Made by a program: the position numbers and the translations under genes. A stretch of DNA of 64,000 nt, from assembly GCA_011523795.1 (NCBI GenBank), contig WTFY01000008.1, positions 134,955 through 198,954 of the forward strand, in the 5' to 3' direction. Positions within the stretch are counted from its first letter, which is position 1. Each line of letters starts with the position of its first letter. The notes under the pieces were generated by a model. It made no database searches. It worked only from the letters and a program-made list of their open reading frames with translations, and was not told where the DNA came from. This document shows, in pieces, positions 38,432 through 48,747 of this stretch. Origin of the DNA: Gammaproteobacteria bacterium. GTDB taxonomy: Bacteria; Pseudomonadota; Gammaproteobacteria; UBA4575.

Positions 38432-38953
38432 TGCCTGGCAGTGGGTACACTCCCAGCTGGTCCAGCTCAAATCGGGTCTGCGATTAAAAAGCTCCGTATA
38501 CGGGATTTTCCGGGTCAACGAAACATGCAAAATCCGGTCGGCGAATGATACTGTTGACCTGATTGCTTGTTCGTGAATATTGTCCTGGAGGCGGACCTGG
38601 GTAAGCAACTGATGCTTGAGTCAAGATTTGGGACGAGGCTCACGGGTTGCCAGCCCACACAGTGTGTGGCGGATTGTCGATGAATGTGTTCATTGAACGG
38701 TGGATTTTGATATGATGTCGTGGCGTAAGTACCAATGCGAGAAGATTGGCACACAAGGTCCCAGCGGAGCTGACAGAATATGCCGTCACCTGCGTGTACG
38801 CAGGCGAATGTCCTGCAGCAGTCGCCCCCGTCAATGCCGGATCTGCGTCCGATGACAAGGGCTGAAGACAGCACGGAACTTTGGAACAGCCCATTTCAGT
38901 GGGTTTCACCAGATCCCTTTGGAATCGCAGATGTGTCCCGGGAGCACCCCCGA
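38432..38953. other. Intergenic region upstream of the RND efflux operon
   Basis: About 520 bases. Contains the candidate promoter at 38688-38716. Open frames here (for example 38640-38990 on the minus strand) match no family and are not accepted. An in-frame ATG at 38780 would extend the channel protein, but the lipoprotein signal argues for 38954. Confidence 0.5.
38688..38716 (+). promoter_or_regulatory. Candidate extended -10 promoter with overlapping palindrome
   Basis: TG-A-TATGAT (38708-38716) is an extended -10. GTTCATTGAAC (38688-38698), an 11-base palindrome, lies where the -35 should be and could be a repressor site. It is 240 bases before the start I chose for the first efflux gene. 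Confidence 0.35.
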
Positions 38954-40522
38954 ATGACCATTCATTCAGGGCCACCCTCAAGGTCGCCATGGTACTCCTT
39001 GCAGGTTGTGGTATATCTGGTCACCATCGTGTGCCTTTCAGCTGCTTGTTCTTCCAAATCAATTCTGCCAGTTTCAGCACCGGCACCGCACTTACCTGAT
39101 AAATTCACCGGGGATCAGGTTGTCGACTCCTATGAACCGTTGGAGTGGTGGAAGACTTTTGATGACCCTGCGCTTGACCGGGCTGTCGAAACCGTGCTTG
39201 CCTCGAACTTCAATCTTGCGGAGGCCGTGGCCCGGGTGGAACAGGCTCGGGCAAGAGCGCGCATCGCGAAGGCAGCAGGGTATCCCATGCTGCAGCCGTC
39301 TGCTGGTGCTGAGGATATCGATACGCCTACAAATTCGGGAATCGGCGAGCAGATTGAGGAAATCGGTCTGAATCCAGAGTTGAAGGAGCAGTTCGGCATC
39401 TCCGTGCCGGACCGGCTGGCCCTGACCACGTATTCCTTGAGCGCGAACTTTTCCTATGAGGCCGACTTTTGGGATCGCAACCGCAACCAAGCCCGCTCCG
39501 CCAGTGCTCAGCATCTGGCTTCAGAATGGGACTATCGTGCGGCCCGCATTGCAGTCGTCGCGGAGACTGTGCATACCTACCTTGAGATCGCATACCTTCG
39601 CCGTCAACTGGGGCTGTTGGACGAGATCGTGGAAATCTTGCGGGAACGCGACAAGCTTACTGCGGCCCGATACAATCGCGGCTTAAATACTGCACGTGAC
39701 CTCTACACAGCCCGGCTTAGGCTGTGGAATGCACAGGCAGAACTCCCTGCAATCGAAGGGCAGTTGGCCGATGCGGAGGGGCGCTTCTGGGTACTGCTGG
39801 GGGGGTATCGTACGGATCTGGCCGACATGTTGCCTGACTCCTTGTTACCATCCGTGACGCTGAGCCCTGTTCCAGTGGGAATACCGGCGGACCTCTTGGT
39901 TCAGCGGCCCGATGTCGGAGCAGCAAGGGAGCGCATGGAAGCCGCTCGCTATGCAGTAGGGGCTCGGCGTGCGGAACTCCTGCCATCCCTGTCCCTGTCC
40001 GGTTCCATCGGTCTGCAAGGTTCGGATACCCACCAGTGGTTCGATGCAGCCCAGTGGTTCAAAAACCTGACCCTGAATTTGGTAGGTCCAGCATTTCAGG
40101 GACAGCGGCTGCGAAATAACGTGAGCTTGGCGGAGACTCGATGGAAAGAAGCCGTTTTCGCATACAAGCATTCTGTCGTTACTGCGGTCAATGAAGTTGA
40201 AGCCGTGCTGGCTAAGCTGGAAACCAGCCAGCGGCGCTATGCCCTGCTGAGTTCTTCTGTCGAGGAAGCCCGCGCCGAGGCGTCCTTCCAGGAACGACGT
40301 TACAGATCCGGTGTCGGGGACTATGATGATTACCTGGCTGCGTCGGAAACTCTCACTAGTGTCAACTCCTCGCTCGTGTCAGCGGAGCACGATCTGGGAT
40401 TCATGCGGCTCGCGCTGCACCGTGCCCTGGGTGGTGCATGGACATCCAAGACGGATTCCACTCAAGCTGACAGTTTGCTGCAGGCGGTGGGCCTGCAGGC
40501 CGTATCTTTATCTACCGAGTAA
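38954..40522 (+). CDS. RND efflux outer-membrane lipoprotein channel (NodT/OprM type)
   Basis: 522 residues from ATG 38954, with GGAG upstream. Lipoprotein signal with lipobox LSAAC (about residues 27-31), then two outer-membrane-factor repeats: WWKTFDDPALDRAVETVLASN (in parts), ANFSYEADFWDRNRNQARSA and a C-terminal ERRYRSGVGDYDDYLAAS. It forms the outer-membrane tunnel of the tripartite pump encoded by the next two genes. Confidence 0.93.
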   Translation: MTIHSGPPSRSPWYSLQVVVYLVTIVCLSAACSSKSILPVSAPAPHLPDKFTGDQVVDSYEPLEWWKTFDDPALDRAVETVLASNFNLAEAVARVEQARARARIAKAAGYPMLQPSAGAEDIDTPTNSGIGEQIEEIGLNPELKEQFGISVPDRLALTTYSLSANFSYEADFWDRNRNQARSASAQHLASEWDYRAARIAVVAETVHTYLEIAYLRRQLGLLDEIVEILRERDKLTAARYNRGLNTARDLYTARLRLWNAQAELPAIEGQLADAEGRFWVLLGGYRTDLADMLPDSLLPSVTLSPVPVGIPADLLVQRPDVGAARERMEAARYAVGARRAELLPSLSLSGSIGLQGSDTHQWFDAAQWFKNLTLNLVGPAFQGQRLRNNVSLAETRWKEAVFAYKHSVVTAVNEVEAVLAKLETSQRRYALLSSSVEEARAEASFQERRYRSGVGDYDDYLAASETLTSVNSSLVSAEHDLGFMRLALHRALGGAWTSKTDSTQADSLLQAVGLQAVSLSTE

Positions 40523-40528
40523 ACCAGC

Positions 40529-41758
40529 ATGAGCAGACTAATGAGCAAACTGATTGGCTACTTGGCCGCGGTAGCTATCATCGTTGGTGCGGGGGCACTG
40601 GCGGTCTATCTTGTGTCACTTGCACCCCAACCAGAGCGAAGCGAACAACCTCCTCAAATCCCGTTTGTACAGTCGGCCCGGGTGATCGCGGGTGTGGGGG
40701 CCATCCCCGTGCATGGTGCTGGAACTGTTCGGCCCAGTGCGGAAATCGAAATTACTACACAGGTCAGTGGCAGGGTCGACTGGATGAGTCCGAGCTTTCA
40801 TAGCGGGGGGCGGGTCAAGGCCGGTGAAACGATCTTTCGCATAGAGCAGGCAGACTACCTGTACCGTCTTCGCGAGGCAGTGGCCGATCTCGAAGACCGC
40901 AAGGTCGCGCTGCTTGAGGCTGAGGAGCAAGCGACTGTGGCGCGCACAGAATACGAGCAATATTCTGGACGACAACTTGAGTCAGGGTCTTCGGTCAATC
41001 TAGCGGGCCCCCTGGTTCTGAAGGAGCCTCAGTTGAAGGCGGCCCAGGCTGCACTGAAACGTGAGGAAGCCCGTGTAGCTCAAGCCAAGCTGGCTTTGTC
41101 CAGAACGCGGGTGAAGGCGCCTTTCGACGGTTATGTGCGTGAGGAGTCGGTGGACATCGGGCAGTTCCTGACAGTCGGCCAGCCTGTCGGGCGGCTGTTT
41201 GCAGCTGATGCCGTCGAGGTGGTCGTACCCCTGTCCGACGCCAACACTGCCATGATTCCTGGGTTGTGGGCGTTGCAGGCAGGAGACAGCAACCGGCGGG
41301 TATCCGCTCGTGTGAGGGCAAGATTCGGAGATGCCAGCTACGTTTGGGACGGTTACGTGGACAGGGCTGAAGCCTCGCTTGATAAGCAAACGCGTACCAC
41401 TGATGTCATCGTGCGTGTCCCCGACCCGTTTTCCGCAGGTACTTTGCTGGACGGGCCCGGTAACCGTGACCATGCCCCTCCACTCCTGATAGGCAAGTTC
41501 GTGGAGGTAGAAATCCGGGGCCTTGTACCGGAGAGCTATTTCCGGGTTCCCCGTTCAGCCCTGCAACCAGGTAACGAGGTTTGGGTAACACGCGATGATC
41601 AGAGGATCAGTATTGTTCCAGTACACATTTTGCAGCGTGGCGATGATGAAGTCTTTGTGACCGGTGCCCTTGAAGAAGGTCAGGCAGTTGTCATCGGCGG
41701 AATTCAGTTTGCCACTGAAGGCATGAAGGTCCGCACTCTGGACGCGATGGAACAATGA
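40529..41758 (+). CDS. RND periplasmic adaptor (membrane fusion protein)
   Basis: 409 residues. It has an N-terminal inner-membrane anchor (about residues 9-27) and a lipoyl/hairpin/beta-barrel plan: GRVDWMSPSFHSGGRVKAGE, a helical hairpin around 110-190, and RVKAPFDGYVREESVDIGQF (in parts). It links the permease to the outer-membrane channel. Its stop overlaps the permease start (ATGA). Confidence 0.94.
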   Translation: MSRLMSKLIGYLAAVAIIVGAGALAVYLVSLAPQPERSEQPPQIPFVQSARVIAGVGAIPVHGAGTVRPSAEIEITTQVSGRVDWMSPSFHSGGRVKAGETIFRIEQADYLYRLREAVADLEDRKVALLEAEEQATVARTEYEQYSGRQLESGSSVNLAGPLVLKEPQLKAAQAALKREEARVAQAKLALSRTRVKAPFDGYVREESVDIGQFLTVGQPVGRLFAADAVEVVVPLSDANTAMIPGLWALQAGDSNRRVSARVRARFGDASYVWDGYVDRAEASLDKQTRTTDVIVRVPDPFSAGTLLDGPGNRDHAPPLLIGKFVEVEIRGLVPESYFRVPRSALQPGNEVWVTRDDQRISIVPVHILQRGDDEVFVTGALEEGQAVVIGGIQFATEGMKVRTLDAMEQ

Positions 41759-44700
41759 GCCGGATAGGCAGTCATCTGGGAGAACCGGCCGGCCCGATCG
41801 CCTATATGGCGAGTAATAGCGTCGCTGCCAATCTGTTCATGTTCGCCATCCTGGCGGCCGGCCTGGTTGCACTGACCGGTCTGGAGCGAGAGTCTTGGCC
41901 CACAGTGCCTTTCAATACTGTCGAAGTCTCTGTGGCCTATCCTGGTGCAACACCAGAGGAGGTGGAAGAGTCGATCGTTGTCAAGATCGAGGAGCAGGTC
42001 AACTCACTGGATGATGTCAAGAGAGTAAAATCAGTGGCGGCCCCAGGGATGGCGTCAGTCCGTGTCGAACTGAAAGCGGGCACGGATATGGGTCGCATGC
42101 TGGACGAGATCAAAACTGCAGTCGGCCGAATCCAGTCTTTCCCGGCTGTGGCCGAGCGCCCAGAGTTCATGGAGATGACCAATCACCAGAGCGTGATCCG
42201 TCTCCTTGTCTACGGGGACATCTCCGAGCGCTCTCTCAAGGAATTGGCATACCAGATCGAGGATGAACTCGCTTCTCTTCCTACAGTGTCATCGGTTGAG
42301 ACCAGTGGTGTGCGAGATTATGAAATCTCAATCGAGGTACCGCAGTACAATCTGCGTGCCTTGGGGCTTACCCTGGCTGACATCGCAAATACGATACGCC
42401 ACGGTTCACTGGACCTGTCAGCAGGCAGCATCGAAACCCAGGATTCCGAGGTGCGTGTTCGCACTCTCGGCCAGCGCTACCACCAGCAGGATTTTGAGGA
42501 GATTGTTGTTCTCAGCCGCAGTGACGGCACGGTCGTGCGCCTCGTCGATATCGCAAAGGTGCATGACGGTTTCCAAGACAGCGATCTGATCATACGTCAC
42601 CAGAATCAACCAGCCGCGTTTGTCGAGGTCTACAGGGCTGACGGCGAACAGGTGATGGATGTCGCCACGGCCGTGCAAGAGCATGTTGCAAATGTGATAA
42701 TCCCATCCCTCCCTGATGGCGTGGGAGTCACCATCTGGAATGATGACTCTCAGACCTATAAGGAACGTGTCAATCTTCTTCTGAAGAATGGCACCCTGGG
42801 CCTGTTGCTGGTCCTGATTGCATTGGCCCTGTTTCTGGAAATCCGGCTCGCTGTGTGGGTGGCTGCAGGCTTGGCCGTATCGGGTATCGGAGCCTTGGCT
42901 GTCATGCTGGCAGTCGATATTGCAATCAATACCATTTCCCTGTTCGCGTTCGTCCTTGCCATCGGCATCGTGGTGGATGATGCGATTGTAGTAGCCGAGC
43001 ATATTCATTATGAACGCAAGCGAGGTACGCCTGGCGTCGTCGCAGCGATACGTGGTACTCGACGCATAAAAGTACCTTTGACGTTTGCAGTGCTTACTTC
43101 AGTCGCAGCATTCATCCCGTTGTTTTTTATACCTGGAGGCATTGGACAGGTATGGAAGGCGTTGCCGGTAATTATTATCGCGATGCTGTTGATTTCTTTG
43201 ATTGAATCACTGCTGATACTGCCTAACCACCTGTCCCATCTGCACGGTCCGGAATGGGCGCCGAAGAATTTTGTCAGCCGGTTCTTTGCCTGGATCCAAG
43301 GCAATGTCGACCGCCTGCTGAACAAATTTTTGGAAGGACCCCTGTATCATGCGCTGCGGTTTGCGACGGCCCAGCCCGCGGTAACGCTGGCGGGCGCCAT
43401 AGGTATGCTCATCCTCAGCATTTCCCTGATACCAGCGGGCATCGTTGCAACGACCTTTGCAGATGTGGTGGAGGGTGATTTCGTGACTGCCAGTCTTGAA
43501 ATGCCTGATGGAACGACTGCGCAAAGGACGTACGAGGTGGCCAAGGAACTGGAGGCAGCCGGACACCGGGTGATTGAACGAATTTCACTTGACCGGGCCG
43601 AGGATGCGCCCCCCTTGCTTTCCGGTGTAACCGTGACGGTTGGCCAAGGGCCGCGTGTCGAGGGAGGAGGGCTTGCGCCAAAACTTTCACTGAATCCGGA
43701 AGCCAATATCGCCACTATCGAATTCAAGCTGTTGAGTGCACAGCATCGGCAGATCTCTACTGGGGCCATTGCTCAGGCTTGGCGGGATGAGGTAGGCATA
43801 TTGCCCTACGTTCGTGGTATTGCCTTTAGCGGCAAGGTCTTTGATCTGGGCAATCCCATCGAGGCGGTCCTGTCGCATCCGGACCCGGAACGCCTCAATC
43901 AAATTGCAGGTTCCGTGGTTCATGGCCTGCGTGAACTGGAAGGAGTCTTTGATGTACGCTCCGATCATACACCGGGAGTCAGGGAGATCCAGCTCGAACT
44001 GCGACCTGAAGCGCGTACACTCGGGGTTACGCTTGAGGAAATGGCTCAACAGGCACGCTCGGCATTCTTTGGCGCGGAGGCTTCGCGGGTGCAGCGAGGG
44101 CGGGAAGAGGTTCGGGTTTATGTGCGACTGCCCGCGGATGAGCGAAATGCCATCACCGATGTTGAGAGGTATCTGATCCGTACGCCAAGCGGGGCTGAAG
44201 TCCCGCTAAGCCAGGTGGCCAGGCTCAAATCAGGTATTTCACCACCCGCGGTCCGTCGTAAGGACGGACAGCGTGTCATCACGGTCACCGCCGACGTTGA
44301 TCAGACTGTAATTACCGGCGGGGAAGCCAACACCATCTTGGCCGATTCGATTCTGGCCGAACTCATGGAGGTGTACCCAGGCCTGACCTATACATTTGGG
44401 GGCGAACAACAGGAGCAGATTGAATCATTGGACTCGCTGAAGCGCGGGTTTGCCATTGCGATGCTCATGATCTTTGCGCTGCTGGCCATTCCCCTTCGTT
44501 CCTATACCAAGCCATTTATCATCATGGCGATTATCCCGTTCGGACTCATCGGCGCGATCTTGGGCCACTTGGTCTTGGGAATCGCCATGAGTGCTGCATC
44601 CTTCATGGGCATCTTTGGTCTGAGCGGCGTCGTCGTAAATGACTCCCTGGTGATGATCGATTTCATCGACCAGAAGCTCGACGAAGGCGTCCCTGCGCGC

Positions 44701-44976
44701 ACCGCGATCATCGAGGGCGCCAAGGGGCGCTTTCGTCCAATCTTGCTCACTTCTGTGACCACCTTCCTCGGGTTCACGCCTCTCATACTCGAGCGTGCCA
44801 TTCAGGCGCAGTTTCTGGTTCCGTTTGCTGCATCACTCGGTTTCGGCATTCTCATCACCACGGCCATACTGATGATGCTCGTGCCTGCACTGATGGCGAT
44901 GCACCTGCACAGAAGAATTCGACGCGATGAAACAAGTACCCTCGCCTCCACAGCAGCCACTCACGCCGCAAACTGA
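41755..44976 (+). CDS. RND multidrug-type efflux permease (HAE1-like)
   Basis: 1073 residues, full length. Twelve helices in two halves with large periplasmic loops. TM4 carries the proton-relay Asp pair in AIGIVVDDAIVVAEH. RND family blocks FGLSGVVVNDSLVMIDFID and FRPILLTSVTTFLGF (in parts) lie in the second half. The motif set fits drug/solvent exporters rather than metal pumps. The substrate is unknown. It is the last gene of the operon. Confidence 0.94.
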   Translation: MSRIGSHLGEPAGPIAYMASNSVAANLFMFAILAAGLVALTGLERESWPTVPFNTVEVSVAYPGATPEEVEESIVVKIEEQVNSLDDVKRVKSVAAPGMASVRVELKAGTDMGRMLDEIKTAVGRIQSFPAVAERPEFMEMTNHQSVIRLLVYGDISERSLKELAYQIEDELASLPTVSSVETSGVRDYEISIEVPQYNLRALGLTLADIANTIRHGSLDLSAGSIETQDSEVRVRTLGQRYHQQDFEEIVVLSRSDGTVVRLVDIAKVHDGFQDSDLIIRHQNQPAAFVEVYRADGEQVMDVATAVQEHVANVIIPSLPDGVGVTIWNDDSQTYKERVNLLLKNGTLGLLLVLIALALFLEIRLAVWVAAGLAVSGIGALAVMLAVDIAINTISLFAFVLAIGIVVDDAIVVAEHIHYERKRGTPGVVAAIRGTRRIKVPLTFAVLTSVAAFIPLFFIPGGIGQVWKALPVIIIAMLLISLIESLLILPNHLSHLHGPEWAPKNFVSRFFAWIQGNVDRLLNKFLEGPLYHALRFATAQPAVTLAGAIGMLILSISLIPAGIVATTFADVVEGDFVTASLEMPDGTTAQRTYEVAKELEAAGHRVIERISLDRAEDAPPLLSGVTVTVGQGPRVEGGGLAPKLSLNPEANIATIEFKLLSAQHRQISTGAIAQAWRDEVGILPYVRGIAFSGKVFDLGNPIEAVLSHPDPERLNQIAGSVVHGLRELEGVFDVRSDHTPGVREIQLELRPEARTLGVTLEEMAQQARSAFFGAEASRVQRGREEVRVYVRLPADERNAITDVERYLIRTPSGAEVPLSQVARLKSGISPPAVRRKDGQRVITVTADVDQTVITGGEANTILADSILAELMEVYPGLTYTFGGEQQEQIESLDSLKRGFAIAMLMIFALLAIPLRSYTKPFIIMAIIPFGLIGAILGHLVLGIAMSAASFMGIFGLSGVVVNDSLVMIDFIDQKLDEGVPARTAIIEGAKGRFRPILLTSVTTFLGFTPLILERAIQAQFLVPFAASLGFGILITTAILMMLVPALMAMHLHRRIRRDETSTLASTAATHAAN

Positions 44977-45168: not shown

Positions 45169-47175
45169 TTAATGAACATTCACGGGGTTTCTGATCTCGG
45201 CAACCCTGAACTTCATCTTCTTGTTCGGTGCTGCTGTGGGAAAGGGGTTGATTCCTAACTTGTAGTTTTCAGGCTCCAATTCCAGTCTTACGTGATGTGT
45301 GATTAGCAGAAGATTGACCATCATCTGCAATTCAACCCAGCGATGCCCCAAGCAGGCATGCGTGCCCAAGCCATAGGGAGAGTAGGCACATGGAACCAGG
45401 TGTTCCTGACGTCCAGGCTGGTAACGTTCGATGTCAAACTTCTGTGGATCCCTGAACAGATCGTTCATATAGTGTGTAGCAGTATGGCAAATCAGTAACC
45501 GGGTTTTGGCGGATACCTCATATTCGTCGATGACGCAGTGATTCATCACGGTTCGTAACTGCCAGGGTATGACAGGGTACATGCGTTCGGATTCGAGAAA
45601 TACTCGATGGGTTATATCAATGTTTGAAGGGTTGAGATCCTCAGCATTTGGCTCCTTTCCATTTCCGAACAGTGAGTCCGTTTCCTGACGTACCCTATCG
45701 TACAGATCAGGATGATTAATCATCGAATACAAAGTAAAAGCCAAACCACTACCGAGGTAGATACTAGCAACCATTGAAGCCACAAACGGGAAAGTGATAT
45801 CTGTTTCAGGAAGAAATTGCGGGTCGGTTCGGTGAAGTTCAAGAACTGCATCAGCAAGGTCTTGCGGTTTACCCTCCCGTTGTGCCGGTGTGTGTGTGGC
45901 ATGGATGGCCTCAACCAGTTGCTGGACTGCCTTTTTAGCTCGCTTCATGCGTGGTGTGGAAAGCATGATTTTTGGTGTCATCCCGGATACATGGGCGTTC
46001 AACGCACGGTGTTCGTAGGCGAGAAGATCGTCAACATAGCTAGAACAATCCACGCCGATCATGAGATGGGAAATCTGGCTGCTAATATGATTCTGGCAAG
46101 CCTTGGTCGCACCGATAATCGAACCCTGCTTCCATTGCTCAAGGGATTTTCGGCAAAGGTAAAAGAGCTCTGGCAGTTTGCGGGAAAGACAGGCACGTGA
46201 ATACGCATTGCGTAATGATTTTCTCAATCGATAATGTTCCGCACCATCCATACCCGGCAATGTGCGAGACGCACCAAATTCACCTTCAAATTGCTTGATG
46301 TAATCCCTCGAACGAAGATAGAACCTTCCTTTTTTTTGAACCCACTGGTTGGTATTCAGACCTGCCAGCAGAAGTACTCGTTGCCCGTTCATCTTGAAGG
46401 GTGCTTCGACAACTGACCCATACTTCTCGTGGACCTGACAGACTGCTTTGGGTATGTAGCCTCTGCGGAAATCTGATATTCGCAGAATATCGGATTTCTT
46501 CATCTTTGGGATGGGCTTGGTTTGAATGATGCGCTTCGTCTTTGGCTTGATTGTGCTCTGCTTAACTGCCTTGGATATGGACTGGCCAACCAGGTCCATT
46601 GAGGCAAGCAATTCTATCCGTTCGACCTTCTCTTGGTAGTCTTCCTCAGAAAGAATGAGTTTGAACCCCTGACATGTATGCATAAGACAGATGAGAATGA
46701 CATCACGAGGTTCTGGAATTATGTCGTTAAGAATAATGTCCAGGATTCTTGTTCTAGCTTCCTCTTTAGATGTGCCGTCTGTCGTGGGATACGTCTTGGT
46801 ACGTGAAACCGACCGTGATAGAGACCAGAACCCACCGGTTTCATATTCCAAGATGCCCTTTTCAACTAATCGGTCCAGTGTAGTAGTGACGATATCTTCG
46901 GATCGTGTAGTGTTCTTTTCAATCCAATACTGGGTGCTGAAAGTGTCTTGCGATTCGCTGATCTCCTTCAATGTGGGATCGAGCATGGAGTCACCGGTCG
47001 GAGTTGCATCAATCAGGCGCAACGAGTCCAAATCGGTGTCAATTCGAAATTCCAAAGCAAGATCAGCGATTACCGCGCCAGCCATAACACATGAGAAGTC
47101 CCAACCCGGCACCATTTCCAGATAGCCGCTTTGCTCGTCAAGCATCAAAAGGACCAGTTCTTCAGTCAATCGCAT
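45169..47175 (-). CDS. GPP34 (GOLPH3-like) domain fused to cytochrome P450
   Basis: 668 residues; the start is ATG 47175 with AGGGAAG upstream. Residues about 2-203 match the GPP34/GOLPH3 fold: LTEELVLLMLDEQSGYLEM, AVIADLAL, DATPTGDSMLDPTLKEI and DRLVEKGILE. In eukaryotes this domain binds PI4P lipid. A Lys/Pro-rich basic linker (about 204-228) joins it to a P450 (about 230-660). The P450 has a C-helix H314/R318 pair, the ExxR motif (E528-R531) and a haem loop YGLGTHACLG with Cys608 as thiolate ligand (Tyr replaces the usual Phe). Helix I (about 464-485) lacks the A/G-G-x-D/E-T motif. Base composition is a little lower in G+C than the neighbours. The substrate is unknown; a membrane-associated lipid is my inference. 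Divergent from the Rieske gene. Confidence 0.88.
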   Translation of the reverse strand: MRLTEELVLLMLDEQSGYLEMVPGWDFSCVMAGAVIADLALEFRIDTDLDSLRLIDATPTGDSMLDPTLKEISESQDTFSTQYWIEKNTTRSEDIVTTTLDRLVEKGILEYETGGFWSLSRSVSRTKTYPTTDGTSKEEARTRILDIILNDIIPEPRDVILICLMHTCQGFKLILSEEDYQEKVERIELLASMDLVGQSISKAVKQSTIKPKTKRIIQTKPIPKMKKSDILRISDFRRGYIPKAVCQVHEKYGSVVEAPFKMNGQRVLLLAGLNTNQWVQKKGRFYLRSRDYIKQFEGEFGASRTLPGMDGAEHYRLRKSLRNAYSRACLSRKLPELFYLCRKSLEQWKQGSIIGATKACQNHISSQISHLMIGVDCSSYVDDLLAYEHRALNAHVSGMTPKIMLSTPRMKRAKKAVQQLVEAIHATHTPAQREGKPQDLADAVLELHRTDPQFLPETDITFPFVASMVASIYLGSGLAFTLYSMINHPDLYDRVRQETDSLFGNGKEPNAEDLNPSNIDITHRVFLESERMYPVIPWQLRTVMNHCVIDEYEVSAKTRLLICHTATHYMNDLFRDPQKFDIERYQPGRQEHLVPCAYSPYGLGTHACLGHRWVELQMMVNLLLITHHVRLELEPENYKLGINPFPTAAPNKKMKFRVAEIRNPVNVH

Positions 47176-47214
47176 CGTTCTTCCCTTGCTGCAAGAGTTT
47201 AACAAAAGGATTTA

Positions 47215-47226
47215 TATACATGTATA
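47215..47226. promoter_or_regulatory. Palindrome TATACATGTATA before the P450 gene
   Basis: A perfect 12-base palindrome of form TATA-N4-TATA, 40 bases upstream of the chosen start. On the minus strand, TATAAA (47211-47216) could be a -10 box and the palindrome then lies just upstream of it, a common place for a repressor site. Confidence 0.4.
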
Positions 47227-47575
47227 AGTCAAAACCAAATTTACATCCATTTTATAGGAATGCTGGTAAATTTTATCGAAAAAGTAATGGCTGCAAAGAT
47301 AATCTCAATTGCCCCCTGTGACGATAGCCAGGGTTACTGCAGTGTCAAGTTTGGCTAAATCTGGAAACCACTCGGGTGAAGACAATCAAGTGGATATCTA
47401 AGCGTCGCTTGGGGAATAGACAGCTTACATAAAGGGAAAATTTGATCGCAAACCCGGGGACTTGGGTTCCGTCACCCTTCTGGTTTCAATCTGCCAGGCT
47501 TTAGGTAGCCTGAGTCATAAGAGCCGTATCTCCCGAGGACTGGAAATCACATAAAATCGTGCATCCTCTATCGTA

Positions 47576-47605
47576 TATAATTGCCCGTAGTATATTCGTA
47601 TACTA
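47576..47605 (+). promoter_or_regulatory. -10 box and palindrome before the Rieske gene
   Basis: A perfect TATAAT (47576-47581) is followed 6 bases later by TAGTATA-TTCG-TATACTA (47588-47605), perfect 7-base arms. This would sit at the transcription start. It may be an operator, or an RNA hairpin with a stable UUCG loop at the 5' end of the transcript. Its core, TATA-N4-TATA, matches the palindrome on the P450 side. Confidence 0.45.
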
Positions 47606-47673
47606 GGGACACGGTATTTTTTGCAGCCCTTGGATGGTACCGCGTTGGTCTAACCACAGGATTCAGGTAAAAA

Positions 47674-48747
47674 ATGCAGACAAGTCAAACCGAGTGCAAT
47701 GACCTTTCCTTACTTTTCCCGTTCCCCGAGGGGTGGTATTTCGTAGCCAGCCGTCGATCCATACTGAAGGAAAGACTGATTCAAAAGACTTGGCTGGGTG
47801 AGCAAATCGTTGTTTGGTGCGATGAGGAAGGACGTATCTGCATGTCTGAGTCGGTATGCCCGCATATGGGTTCTGAACTGGGACCTGCTACCGGGGGCCG
47901 TGTACGCAACGGTTGCCTCGTGTGTCCTTTTCATGGTTTCGAGTACGATGTAACCGGCCAGTGTGTTGCCACCCCCTTTGCCCCGGCACCCAAGTCCGCC
48001 AAGCTGAAGGTGTTCGAAACACGGGAACTGCTTGGTCTCGTCTTCGCTTGGTGGGGGAATGGTGGACAGTCTCCTCGGTGGAGTCTTCCCGAAGATCCAA
48101 CCACTGGGCCTGACTGGGGCGAACTGGAATTTCGAAGTATGCGGTTCCCTGGCCATCCCCAGGAAACCACCGAAAATGCCGTGGACCTGGCGCACCTGAG
48201 GTACGTGCATGGTTACAGCAATGTGAGCCGGACAGCATCGGTATCGGTAAAAGGTGCCTGCCTTGAAAGCTGCTTTGACTTTAAACGGAGACAGAACATA
48301 GCAGGTATCATGAGATTTATGTTTGATGTTTCTGCCACCACCCACGTCTTTGGGCTGGGATACTCATTCGTGCAGATCCATGAGCGTACCCTTGGTATGG
48401 ATGCGCGCCTGTGGGTACTCGCAACGCCTGTCGATGGCAAGTTCATAGACTTGGTGTTGGTCGGGCAGTTGCGGGAATTACGCAAACCGAAGCGACCGAT
48501 CATTGGCATGCGATTTTTTCCTGTAGGTTTGCGTACCAGGATCATGGGCAAAATACTCGCGTCCGTGCAAAAGCGCGACGTTTTGCAGGATGTGGCAATT
48601 TGGAGCAGAAAACAGTATAGAGCTCACCCTCAGCTGTGTCGGTCTGACGGGGAGATTGCAATCTATCGACGCTATTGCGAACAATTCTATCCAGCTCGAC
48701 CGGATGGAATTCAGAACAGACGTAAGCTGCAGTCTGTACGGGTATAG
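47674..48747 (+). CDS. Rieske non-haem iron oxygenase
   Basis: 357 residues. The N-terminal Rieske [2Fe-2S] domain has CPH (C62, H64) and CPFH (C84, H87). The catalytic domain has the iron-binding ENAVDLAHLRYVHG with D171, H174 and H179. The layout resembles single-component-type oxygenases acting on sterols or other bulky hydrophobic substrates (KshA, cholesterol 7-desaturase and related groups); an exact substrate cannot be given. A reductase partner is not visible nearby. Divergent from the GPP34-P450 gene. Confidence 0.9.
   Translation: MQTSQTECNDLSLLFPFPEGWYFVASRRSILKERLIQKTWLGEQIVVWCDEEGRICMSESVCPHMGSELGPATGGRVRNGCLVCPFHGFEYDVTGQCVATPFAPAPKSAKLKVFETRELLGLVFAWWGNGGQSPRWSLPEDPTTGPDWGELEFRSMRFPGHPQETTENAVDLAHLRYVHGYSNVSRTASVSVKGACLESCFDFKRRQNIAGIMRFMFDVSATTHVFGLGYSFVQIHERTLGMDARLWVLATPVDGKFIDLVLVGQLRELRKPKRPIIGMRFFPVGLRTRIMGKILASVQKRDVLQDVAIWSRKQYRAHPQLCRSDGEIAIYRRYCEQFYPARPDGIQNRRKLQSVRV

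What the first reader, a model, noticed from the sequence alone, without database searches (positions are those of the whole stretch)
45169..48747. Divergent GPP34-P450 and Rieske oxygenase locus: candidate lipid or sterol oxidation module
Two different oxygenases face away from each other around one 0.5 kb regulatory region, with a secreted sensor-like gene after the second. Rieske enzymes with this general layout act on sterols or similar large hydrophobic substrates, and the P450 carries a lipid-binding domain. Together they suggest a membrane-lipid, hopanoid, sterol or terpenoid modification path. No redox partners (ferredoxin, reductase) are encoded beside them, so these must come from elsewhere. 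The P450 gene also looks lower in G+C than its neighbours, consistent with transfer.
Basis: inference. Interest (0 to 1): 0.75.

Follow-up and report, generated by a model that had tools for sequence, protein, structure and literature searches.

The report
Sponge-symbiont sterol oxidation and export module
Two oxygen-using enzymes and a three-part export pump sit together in bacteria whose relatives live in sponges and that also carry genes for making sterols (cholesterol-like lipids), so the group probably modifies and exports sterols, which bears on who really makes the unusual sterols found in sponges.

Summary
In detail: a GPP34-cytochrome P450 fusion (45169-47175, minus) and a KshA-type Rieske oxygenase (47674-48747, plus) lie 498 bp apart. 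The same genome has a sterol operon: squalene-epoxidase/oxidosqualene-cyclase fusion, CYP51, ERG24, SdmA- and SdmB-like genes, with a sterol C-24 methyltransferase (SMT) beside it. Of 12 genomes found with the fusion, 9 carry the KshA-clade Rieske and 9 an oxidosqualene cyclase; all 11 tested carry an SMT. Three lack cyclase and ERG24 but keep fusion, Rieske and SMT, which suggests action on sterols already made. The P450 keeps its haem cysteine and ExxR but has lost the I-helix acid-alcohol pair in 12 of 12. The Rieske model is closest to 3-ketosteroid 9-alpha-hydroxylase. Best reading: an accessory sterol-nucleus oxidation and export module; exact reaction, redox partner and product unknown. 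Sterol clusters in sponge bacteria are already published; I did not find this extension in the papers I examined.

The parts
45169..47175 (-). GPP34-cytochrome P450 fusion, 668 aa; haem Cys608 and ExxR (E528) kept, I-helix acid/alcohol positions are Y473/L474
47674..48747 (+). KshA-type Rieske oxygenase, 357 aa; [2Fe-2S] ligands C62/H64/C84/H87; D171, H174, H179, D306 invariant in 9 of 9
38780..40522 (+). outer-membrane efflux protein (TolC/NodT type), part of the conserved block
40529..41758 (+). periplasmic adaptor (RND_mfp), part of the conserved block
41755..44976 (+). RND permease, part of the conserved block
47176..47673 (.). 498 bp divergent intergenic region; the orientation of the pair is not conserved in relatives

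Best explanation
The locus is an accessory sterol-modification and export module in sponge-symbiont-type Gammaproteobacteria. A sterol core is made elsewhere in the genome (fused squalene epoxidase/oxidosqualene cyclase, CYP51, ERG24, SdmA- and SdmB-like genes) and alkylated at C-24 by SMT. The KshA-type Rieske oxygenase then oxidises or desaturates the ring nucleus (ring B/C most likely, by analogy with KshA and the DAF-36/Neverland 7-desaturases). The GPP34-P450, placed at the inner membrane by its GPP34 domain, does a second oxidative or dehydrative step by a route that does not use the usual acid-alcohol proton relay. The TolC-MFP-RND pump exports the product to the outer membrane or the host. 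Shown: gene presence, co-occurrence, linkage, intact metal and haem ligands, loss of the acid-alcohol pair. Inferred: substrate class, order of steps, membrane docking, export. Unknown: exact carbon, redox partner, product.
For: Same genome: SMT, SE-OSC fusion (1130 aa), P450, ERG24, Rieske and 3beta-HSD-like genes at G000:C18; the closest NCBIfam names are oxidosqualene cyclase, SdmA and SdmB, each below that model's own cut-off; OSC motif DCTAE. Fusion carriers found: 12. KshA-clade Rieske in 9 of 12, 9 of 11 carriers against 0 of 9 non-carriers (one-sided Fisher p 0.0003; related genomes are not independent). SMT in 11 of 11 tested carriers; OSC in 9 of 12. In 369 class genomes only G000 and G204 (different families) have the fusion; both are among the 3 with the full-length SE-OSC fusion. 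Linkage: SMT next to the fusion in L024-L029 and behind the pump in L023; the sterol operon follows in L024, L026, L027. Pump + fusion in 6 of 6 loci outside the L024-L029 group; in L201 and L023 no other window gene is shared. Three genomes without OSC and ERG24 keep fusion, SMT and Rieske. Profile of the fusions: best PDB sequences are M. capsulatus CYP51, P450 entries 7f3w/7f3h, another CYP51, then cholesterol 24-hydroxylase. Rieske model: KshA Z 29.5 against 24.2 for the next family. A Planktothrix plasmid with OSC carries both a P450 of this clan and KshA-clade Rieskes.
Against: No lipid or enzyme data. Rieske is missing in carriers G001, G056 and G204, so the two enzymes are separable. 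G004 and G046 have OSC without the module. In the window genome the module is on another contig than the sterol operon. The RND permease is closest to multidrug-type models, not to a sterol transporter model. Rieskes of the window group and the L024-L029 group are only about 36% identical, so they may act on different positions. KshA-type and P450 relatives also occur in catabolic-looking loci, so degradation is possible. Several counts rest on MAGs.
Confidence: 0.72

Rival explanations
1. Host-sterol remodelling or detoxification: the module acts mainly on sterols taken from the sponge (or from other symbionts), hydroxylating them for removal by the efflux pump; own synthesis is incidental.
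For: Three carriers (G057, G060, G061) have no OSC and no ERG24 yet keep fusion, Rieske and SMT, and L025 shows a contig in which the sterol operon is absent at that place; the pump is of multidrug type.
Against: 9 of 12 carriers do have OSC, and the module is kept beside SMT, a biosynthetic enzyme.
Confidence: 0.35
2. Steroid catabolism: Rieske and P450 start ring opening or side-chain degradation, as KshA and CYP125 do in actinobacteria.
For: The nearest P450 without GPP34 lies beside a 3-ketosteroid-1-dehydrogenase-like gene and acyl-CoA dehydrogenases; KshA fold.
Against: No KstD, acyl-CoA dehydrogenase or CoA ligase gene is evident beside the window pair or its close relatives by inspection of neighbours; the P450 has lost the acid-alcohol pair that those relatives keep. 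KstD was not searched genome-wide.
Confidence: 0.12
3. Non-sterol terpenoid or lipid oxidation: the module is unrelated to the sterol operon and co-occurs only because both are common in sponge symbionts.
For: Module and operon are unlinked in the window genome; weak NCBIfam similarity of the P450 to terpene oxygenases.
Against: Direct linkage to SMT in two other lineages; in the class sample both fusion genomes are SE-OSC genomes; related P450 and Rieske in a cyanobacterial OSC cluster.
Confidence: 0.12

Closest known systems
Clusters of steroid genes in sponge symbionts (Microbiome 2022, PMC9531527; Brown et al. 2023, PMC10070321)
   Same: ERG24, CYP51, OSC and SMT, with sdmAB homologues in Brown et al.; sponge-associated bacteria.
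   Different: The passages and sections I read mention no GPP34-P450, no KshA-type Rieske and no pump.
3-ketosteroid 9-alpha-hydroxylase KshA (Mycobacterium, Rhodococcus)
   Same: Pfam KshA_C, Rieske and mononuclear iron ligands, best fold match.
   Different: 22% structural identity; occurs with sterol biosynthesis genes in the genome rather than in an evident catabolic locus; activity untested.
SdmA, C-4 methylsterol oxygenase
   Same: Rieske oxygenase on sterols in bacteria; a separate SdmA-like gene is in the same genome.
   Different: The window Rieske lies outside the SdmA clade and scores 32.5 against a cut-off of 600.
CYP51 sterol 14-alpha-demethylase
   Same: Best sequence-profile match among solved structures.
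   Different: The fusion is outside the CYP51 clade, lacks the H-T pair seen in the four CYP51-like proteins, and carries GPP34.
GOLPH3/Vps74 (GPP34 domain)
   Same: Pfam GPP34; GOLPH3 1.5e-6 by sequence.
   Different: Here fused to P450 in bacteria; the GOLPH3 arginine in GLRGCM pairs with Ala32 in the alignment (its role in PI4P binding is recalled).
BstABC sterol transporters of Methylococcus (PMC10942540, passages)
   Same: An RND protein linked to sterol genes.
   Different: The window has a tripartite TolC-MFP-RND pump with multidrug-type permease; no comparison with BstA itself was made.
Steroid cluster on Planktothrix agardhii plasmid NZ_LR882940.1
   Same: OSC plus a P450 of the same clan and three KshA-clade Rieskes.
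   Different: No GPP34 and no pump among the annotated genes there; KstD-like and EBP genes present.

Membership tests
Cytochrome P450 | haem-binding Cys and ExxR | tested here: met
   Cys and E/R in 12 of 12; Pfam 3.3e-35
Cytochrome P450, canonical monooxygenase | I-helix acid-alcohol pair (usual, not universal) | tested here: not met
   Y at acid, L/M/P at alcohol position in 12 of 12; two P450-only relatives keep D-T
CYP51 | falls in the CYP51 clade | tested here: not met
   tree of 27 rows
GPP34 (GOLPH3) | Pfam GPP34 above cut-off | tested here: met
   116.9 bits, cut-off 29.1
GPP34 (GOLPH3) | PI4P-binding basic residues | tested here: inconclusive
   one Arg pairs with Ala32 in a weak alignment; residue role recalled
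KshA-type Rieske oxygenases | KshA_C domain, Rieske and 2-His-1-carboxylate ligands | tested here: met
KshA-type Rieske oxygenases | fold closest to KshA | tested here: met
   Z 29.5, 315 aligned, 2.9 A (model pLDDT 73)
KshA proper (3-ketosteroid 9-alpha-hydroxylase) | 9-alpha-hydroxylation of 3-ketosteroids | not testable with these tools
   needs enzyme assay
SdmA | SdmA clade / NCBIfam cut-off | tested here: not met
   32.5 of 600 bits; outside the clade. The operon's own SdmA-like protein reaches 390, also below the cut-off
Bacterial sterol biosynthesis gene cluster | OSC, SE, CYP51 and ERG24 in the same genome | tested here: met
   on another contig than the window; the CYP51 assignment rests on clustering and context, not on an assay
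BstABC sterol transporter | BstA-type RND with BstB and BstC | tested here: inconclusive
   only multidrug RND, MFP and OM models matched; no Bst model among the matches

The most novel reading that the evidence does not exclude
The module is a missing late stage of symbiont-made sponge signature sterols. In Ca. Porisulfidus TsSOB (host Theonella swinhoei, recalled) the set SE-OSC, CYP51, ERG24, SdmA- and SdmB-like genes, two SMTs and a second ERG4/ERG24-type reductase, with no EBP and no FA_hydroxylase found, plus this module and pump, would suit 24-alkylated sterols without a delta-5 bond, such as the 4-methylene 8(14)-sterols for which Theonella is known; the Rieske and the acid-alcohol-less GPP34-P450 would supply nuclear oxidation and dehydration steps. 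ERG24 is normally expected to give delta-8, so the 8(14) bond is unexplained.
Probability: 0.12. Interest if true: 0.87.

Novelty: new variant of a known kind. Interest (0 to 1): 0.62.

Why it matters
Who makes the odd, 24-alkylated and nucleus-oxidised sterols of sponges, host or symbiont, is an open question that also affects sterane biomarkers. The core symbiont pathway is published. This locus adds a conserved set of two extra oxygenases and a pump that keeps together in different genomic surroundings, with concrete candidates for later steps and for delivery, and gives a genetic marker (the GPP34-P450) to trace it. The P450 is also of interest in itself: a Golgi-type lipid-binding domain fused to a P450 that keeps haem binding but has uniformly lost the usual proton-relay pair.

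Tried and rejected
Hopanoid substrate: set aside for G000, which has a single SQHop cyclase with the OSC motif. Shared divergent promoter as the key feature: rejected, orientation varies. The secreted gene as part of the unit: rejected, seen only in G002. P450 structure: the model is poor in the P450 half (pLDDT 56 overall), so no fold search was made with it. Isomerase of the EBP type: 0 of 17 genomes; ERG2, DHCR24 and KstD were not searched genome-wide. FA_hydroxylase is too widespread to be informative (19 of 20); G055 alone has none. My recollection that Methylococcus uses ERG24 for its 8(14) sterols was wrong: a 2026 paper (PMC13277303; part 1 and search passages read) assigns this to another protein. 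Literature: GPP34 with P450 gave 4 papers, by titles and abstract starts insect and pesticide work; sponge + symbiont + sterol + Rieske + cytochrome P450 + gammaproteobacteria gave 0; this library is open-access only. Trees: the Rieske tree has 44 rows, 25 chosen plus 19 from 20 further loci tried, two pairs identical; the P450 tree has 27 chosen rows, a short Planktothrix P450 piece left out. Sampling is thin and the relation to the Planktothrix Rieskes is weakly supported (80/89). My simple ORF picker missed the fusion in L201 (an antisense ORF was longer); tblastn recovered it.
Full report
What is there. The window holds a GPP34-P450 fusion on the minus strand (45169-47175, 668 aa; the upstream TTG is not supported by homologues) and a KshA_C Rieske oxygenase on the plus strand (47674-48747). 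Upstream, in the order TolC, MFP, RND, lies a tripartite efflux pump (38780-44976). Downstream come a small secreted ORF and glycolytic genes.

Relatives. Twelve genomes with the full fusion were found: G000-G003 (one genus), G055 (Ca. Porisulfidus TsSOB, L023), G056-G061 (L024-L029, whose record titles include a Pseudomonadales and an OMG-group MAG, the others only Gammaproteobacteria) and G204 (another family). L023's record title names a sponge sample; TsSOB is listed as Poriferisulfidus primus (Lavy et al. 2018) in PMC12451612 (one passage). That the other MAGs come from sponges is recalled from their sample codes, and the habitat of the window's own genome is not told.

Sterol link. In the window's genome, contig C18 carries SMT, an SE-OSC fusion, a CYP51-like P450, ERG24, an SdmA-like Rieske and an SdmB-like dehydrogenase. 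The cyclase has the DCTAE motif. SMT occurs in 11 of 11 fusion carriers tested and, of 6 non-carriers tested in the same call, in G004 alone. OSC occurs in 9 of 12 carriers. The KshA-type Rieske occurs in 9 of 11 carriers and 0 of 9 non-carriers tested; the twelfth carrier, G204, gave no Rieske match at 1e-10. Counting genomes as if independent, which they are not, the one-sided Fisher p is 0.0003. Among 369 genomes sampled across the class, the full fusion is in G000 and G204 only (the other 8 of 10 matching genomes have GPP34 or P450 alone); the full-length SE-OSC is in G000, G204 and G046 only; the chance of both falling in the three is 4e-5.

Linkage. In L024-L029 SMT lies directly beside the fusion, with an alpha/beta hydrolase, and in L024, L026 and L027 the sterol operon follows. 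In L023 the order is Rieske, fusion, TolC, MFP, RND, SMT. The SMTs beside the fusion (L023, L024, L025, L029 compared) are of a second type by their region I sequence. In L201 (G204) and L023, of all window ORFs of 120 aa or more, only the pump genes and the fusion (plus Rieske in L023) match: the block is conserved while its surroundings differ. In G002 the fusion is 45% identical to the window's and groups with that of G204 (100/99), although Rieske and pump are 81-85% identical and the glycolytic flanks are conserved. I read this as replacement in place or differential loss of copies; either way the position was kept.

Without synthesis. G057, G060 and G061 have no match to SQHop_cyclase_C or ERG4_ERG24 but have fusion, SMT and Rieske. 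L025 shows a continuous contig without the operon after SMT and hydrolase. All are MAGs, so absence is not proof, but three of three for two families suggests that the module can work on sterols from elsewhere.

Enzymes. All 9 aligned Rieskes keep the cluster ligands and the D/H/H/D set. The AlphaFold model (pLDDT 73) is closest to KshA (Z 29.5, 315 residues, 2.9 A), then saxitoxin-pathway oxygenases (24.2). In the tree, the window group and the L135-L139 group form one clade (100/99), inside a larger KshA-type clade that holds the Planktothrix Rieskes (80/89, weak) and excludes SdmA. All 12 fusions keep the haem Cys and ExxR but have Y and L/M/P where P450s usually have an acid and an alcohol. 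Relatives without GPP34 at 28-30% identity (L202, L203) keep D-T; that of L202 lies beside a 3-ketosteroid-1-dehydrogenase-like gene. The profile's best solved-structure matches are M. capsulatus CYP51, then P450 entries 7f3w/7f3h and another CYP51, then CYP46A1. A Planktothrix agardhii plasmid carries an oxidosqualene cyclase, a P450 in the same clan, a CYP51-like P450, three KshA-clade Rieskes and a KstD-like gene: an independent case of these families together around sterol or steroid biosynthesis.

Literature. Sterol gene clusters and working SMTs in sponge symbionts are published (PMC10070321: parts 1-2, discussion and search passages; PMC9531527: passages). Bacterial cholesterol synthesis: PMC10202945, parts 1-3. 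Theonella 4-methylene sterols, 24-alkylated, with a rare nuclear double bond and a proposed oxidation-dehydration origin: PMC10223449, passages; also PMC3280575, passages. Sterol transporters BstABC: PMC10942540, passages. In these I saw no GPP34-P450 or KshA-type Rieske in the sponge context, but I did not read them all in full and no supplements.

Verdict. A sterol-oxidation module is the best reading (0.72); that the pump exports the product is an inference from linkage. Which carbon is attacked, in what order, with which electron donor, is not known.

Noticed in passing
L050:4676-8068 (G000:C18) and relatives L056, L057, L058, L094, L059: Squalene epoxidase and oxidosqualene cyclase fused in one protein of about 1130 aa; full-length in 3 of 369 class genomes. 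Whether this fusion is already described was not settled.
   Followed up: partly
L024-L029, upstream of the GPP34-P450: Tandem arrays of thioredoxin-like (TlpA type) proteins and of an unknown family, in varying copy number.
   Followed up: no
L051:6764-10108 (G000:C13); also L060, L061, L210: A GPP34 protein without P450 beside a multihaem cytochrome c and, in L051, L060 and L061, a Tll0287-like protein, conserved in several fusion carriers.
   Followed up: no
L204:8361-10889 (G385): P450 fused to two cyclic-nucleotide-binding domains, also lacking the I-helix acid-alcohol pair.
   Followed up: no
L233 (Planktothrix agardhii plasmid NZ_LR882940.1): Apparent steroid gene cluster on a cyanobacterial plasmid: oxidosqualene cyclase, squalene synthase, P450s, three KshA-type Rieskes, KstD-like, EBP family.
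   Followed up: partly
L092:9598-10683 (G000:C18) and L093:9660-10970 (G055:C13): Second ERG4/ERG24-family reductase, about 34% identical to the operon's ERG24; possible side-chain or other nuclear reductase.
   Followed up: no
L054:9411-11423 (G002): Divergent GPP34-P450 (45%) in the same position as the window's, with orthologous neighbours.
   Followed up: partly
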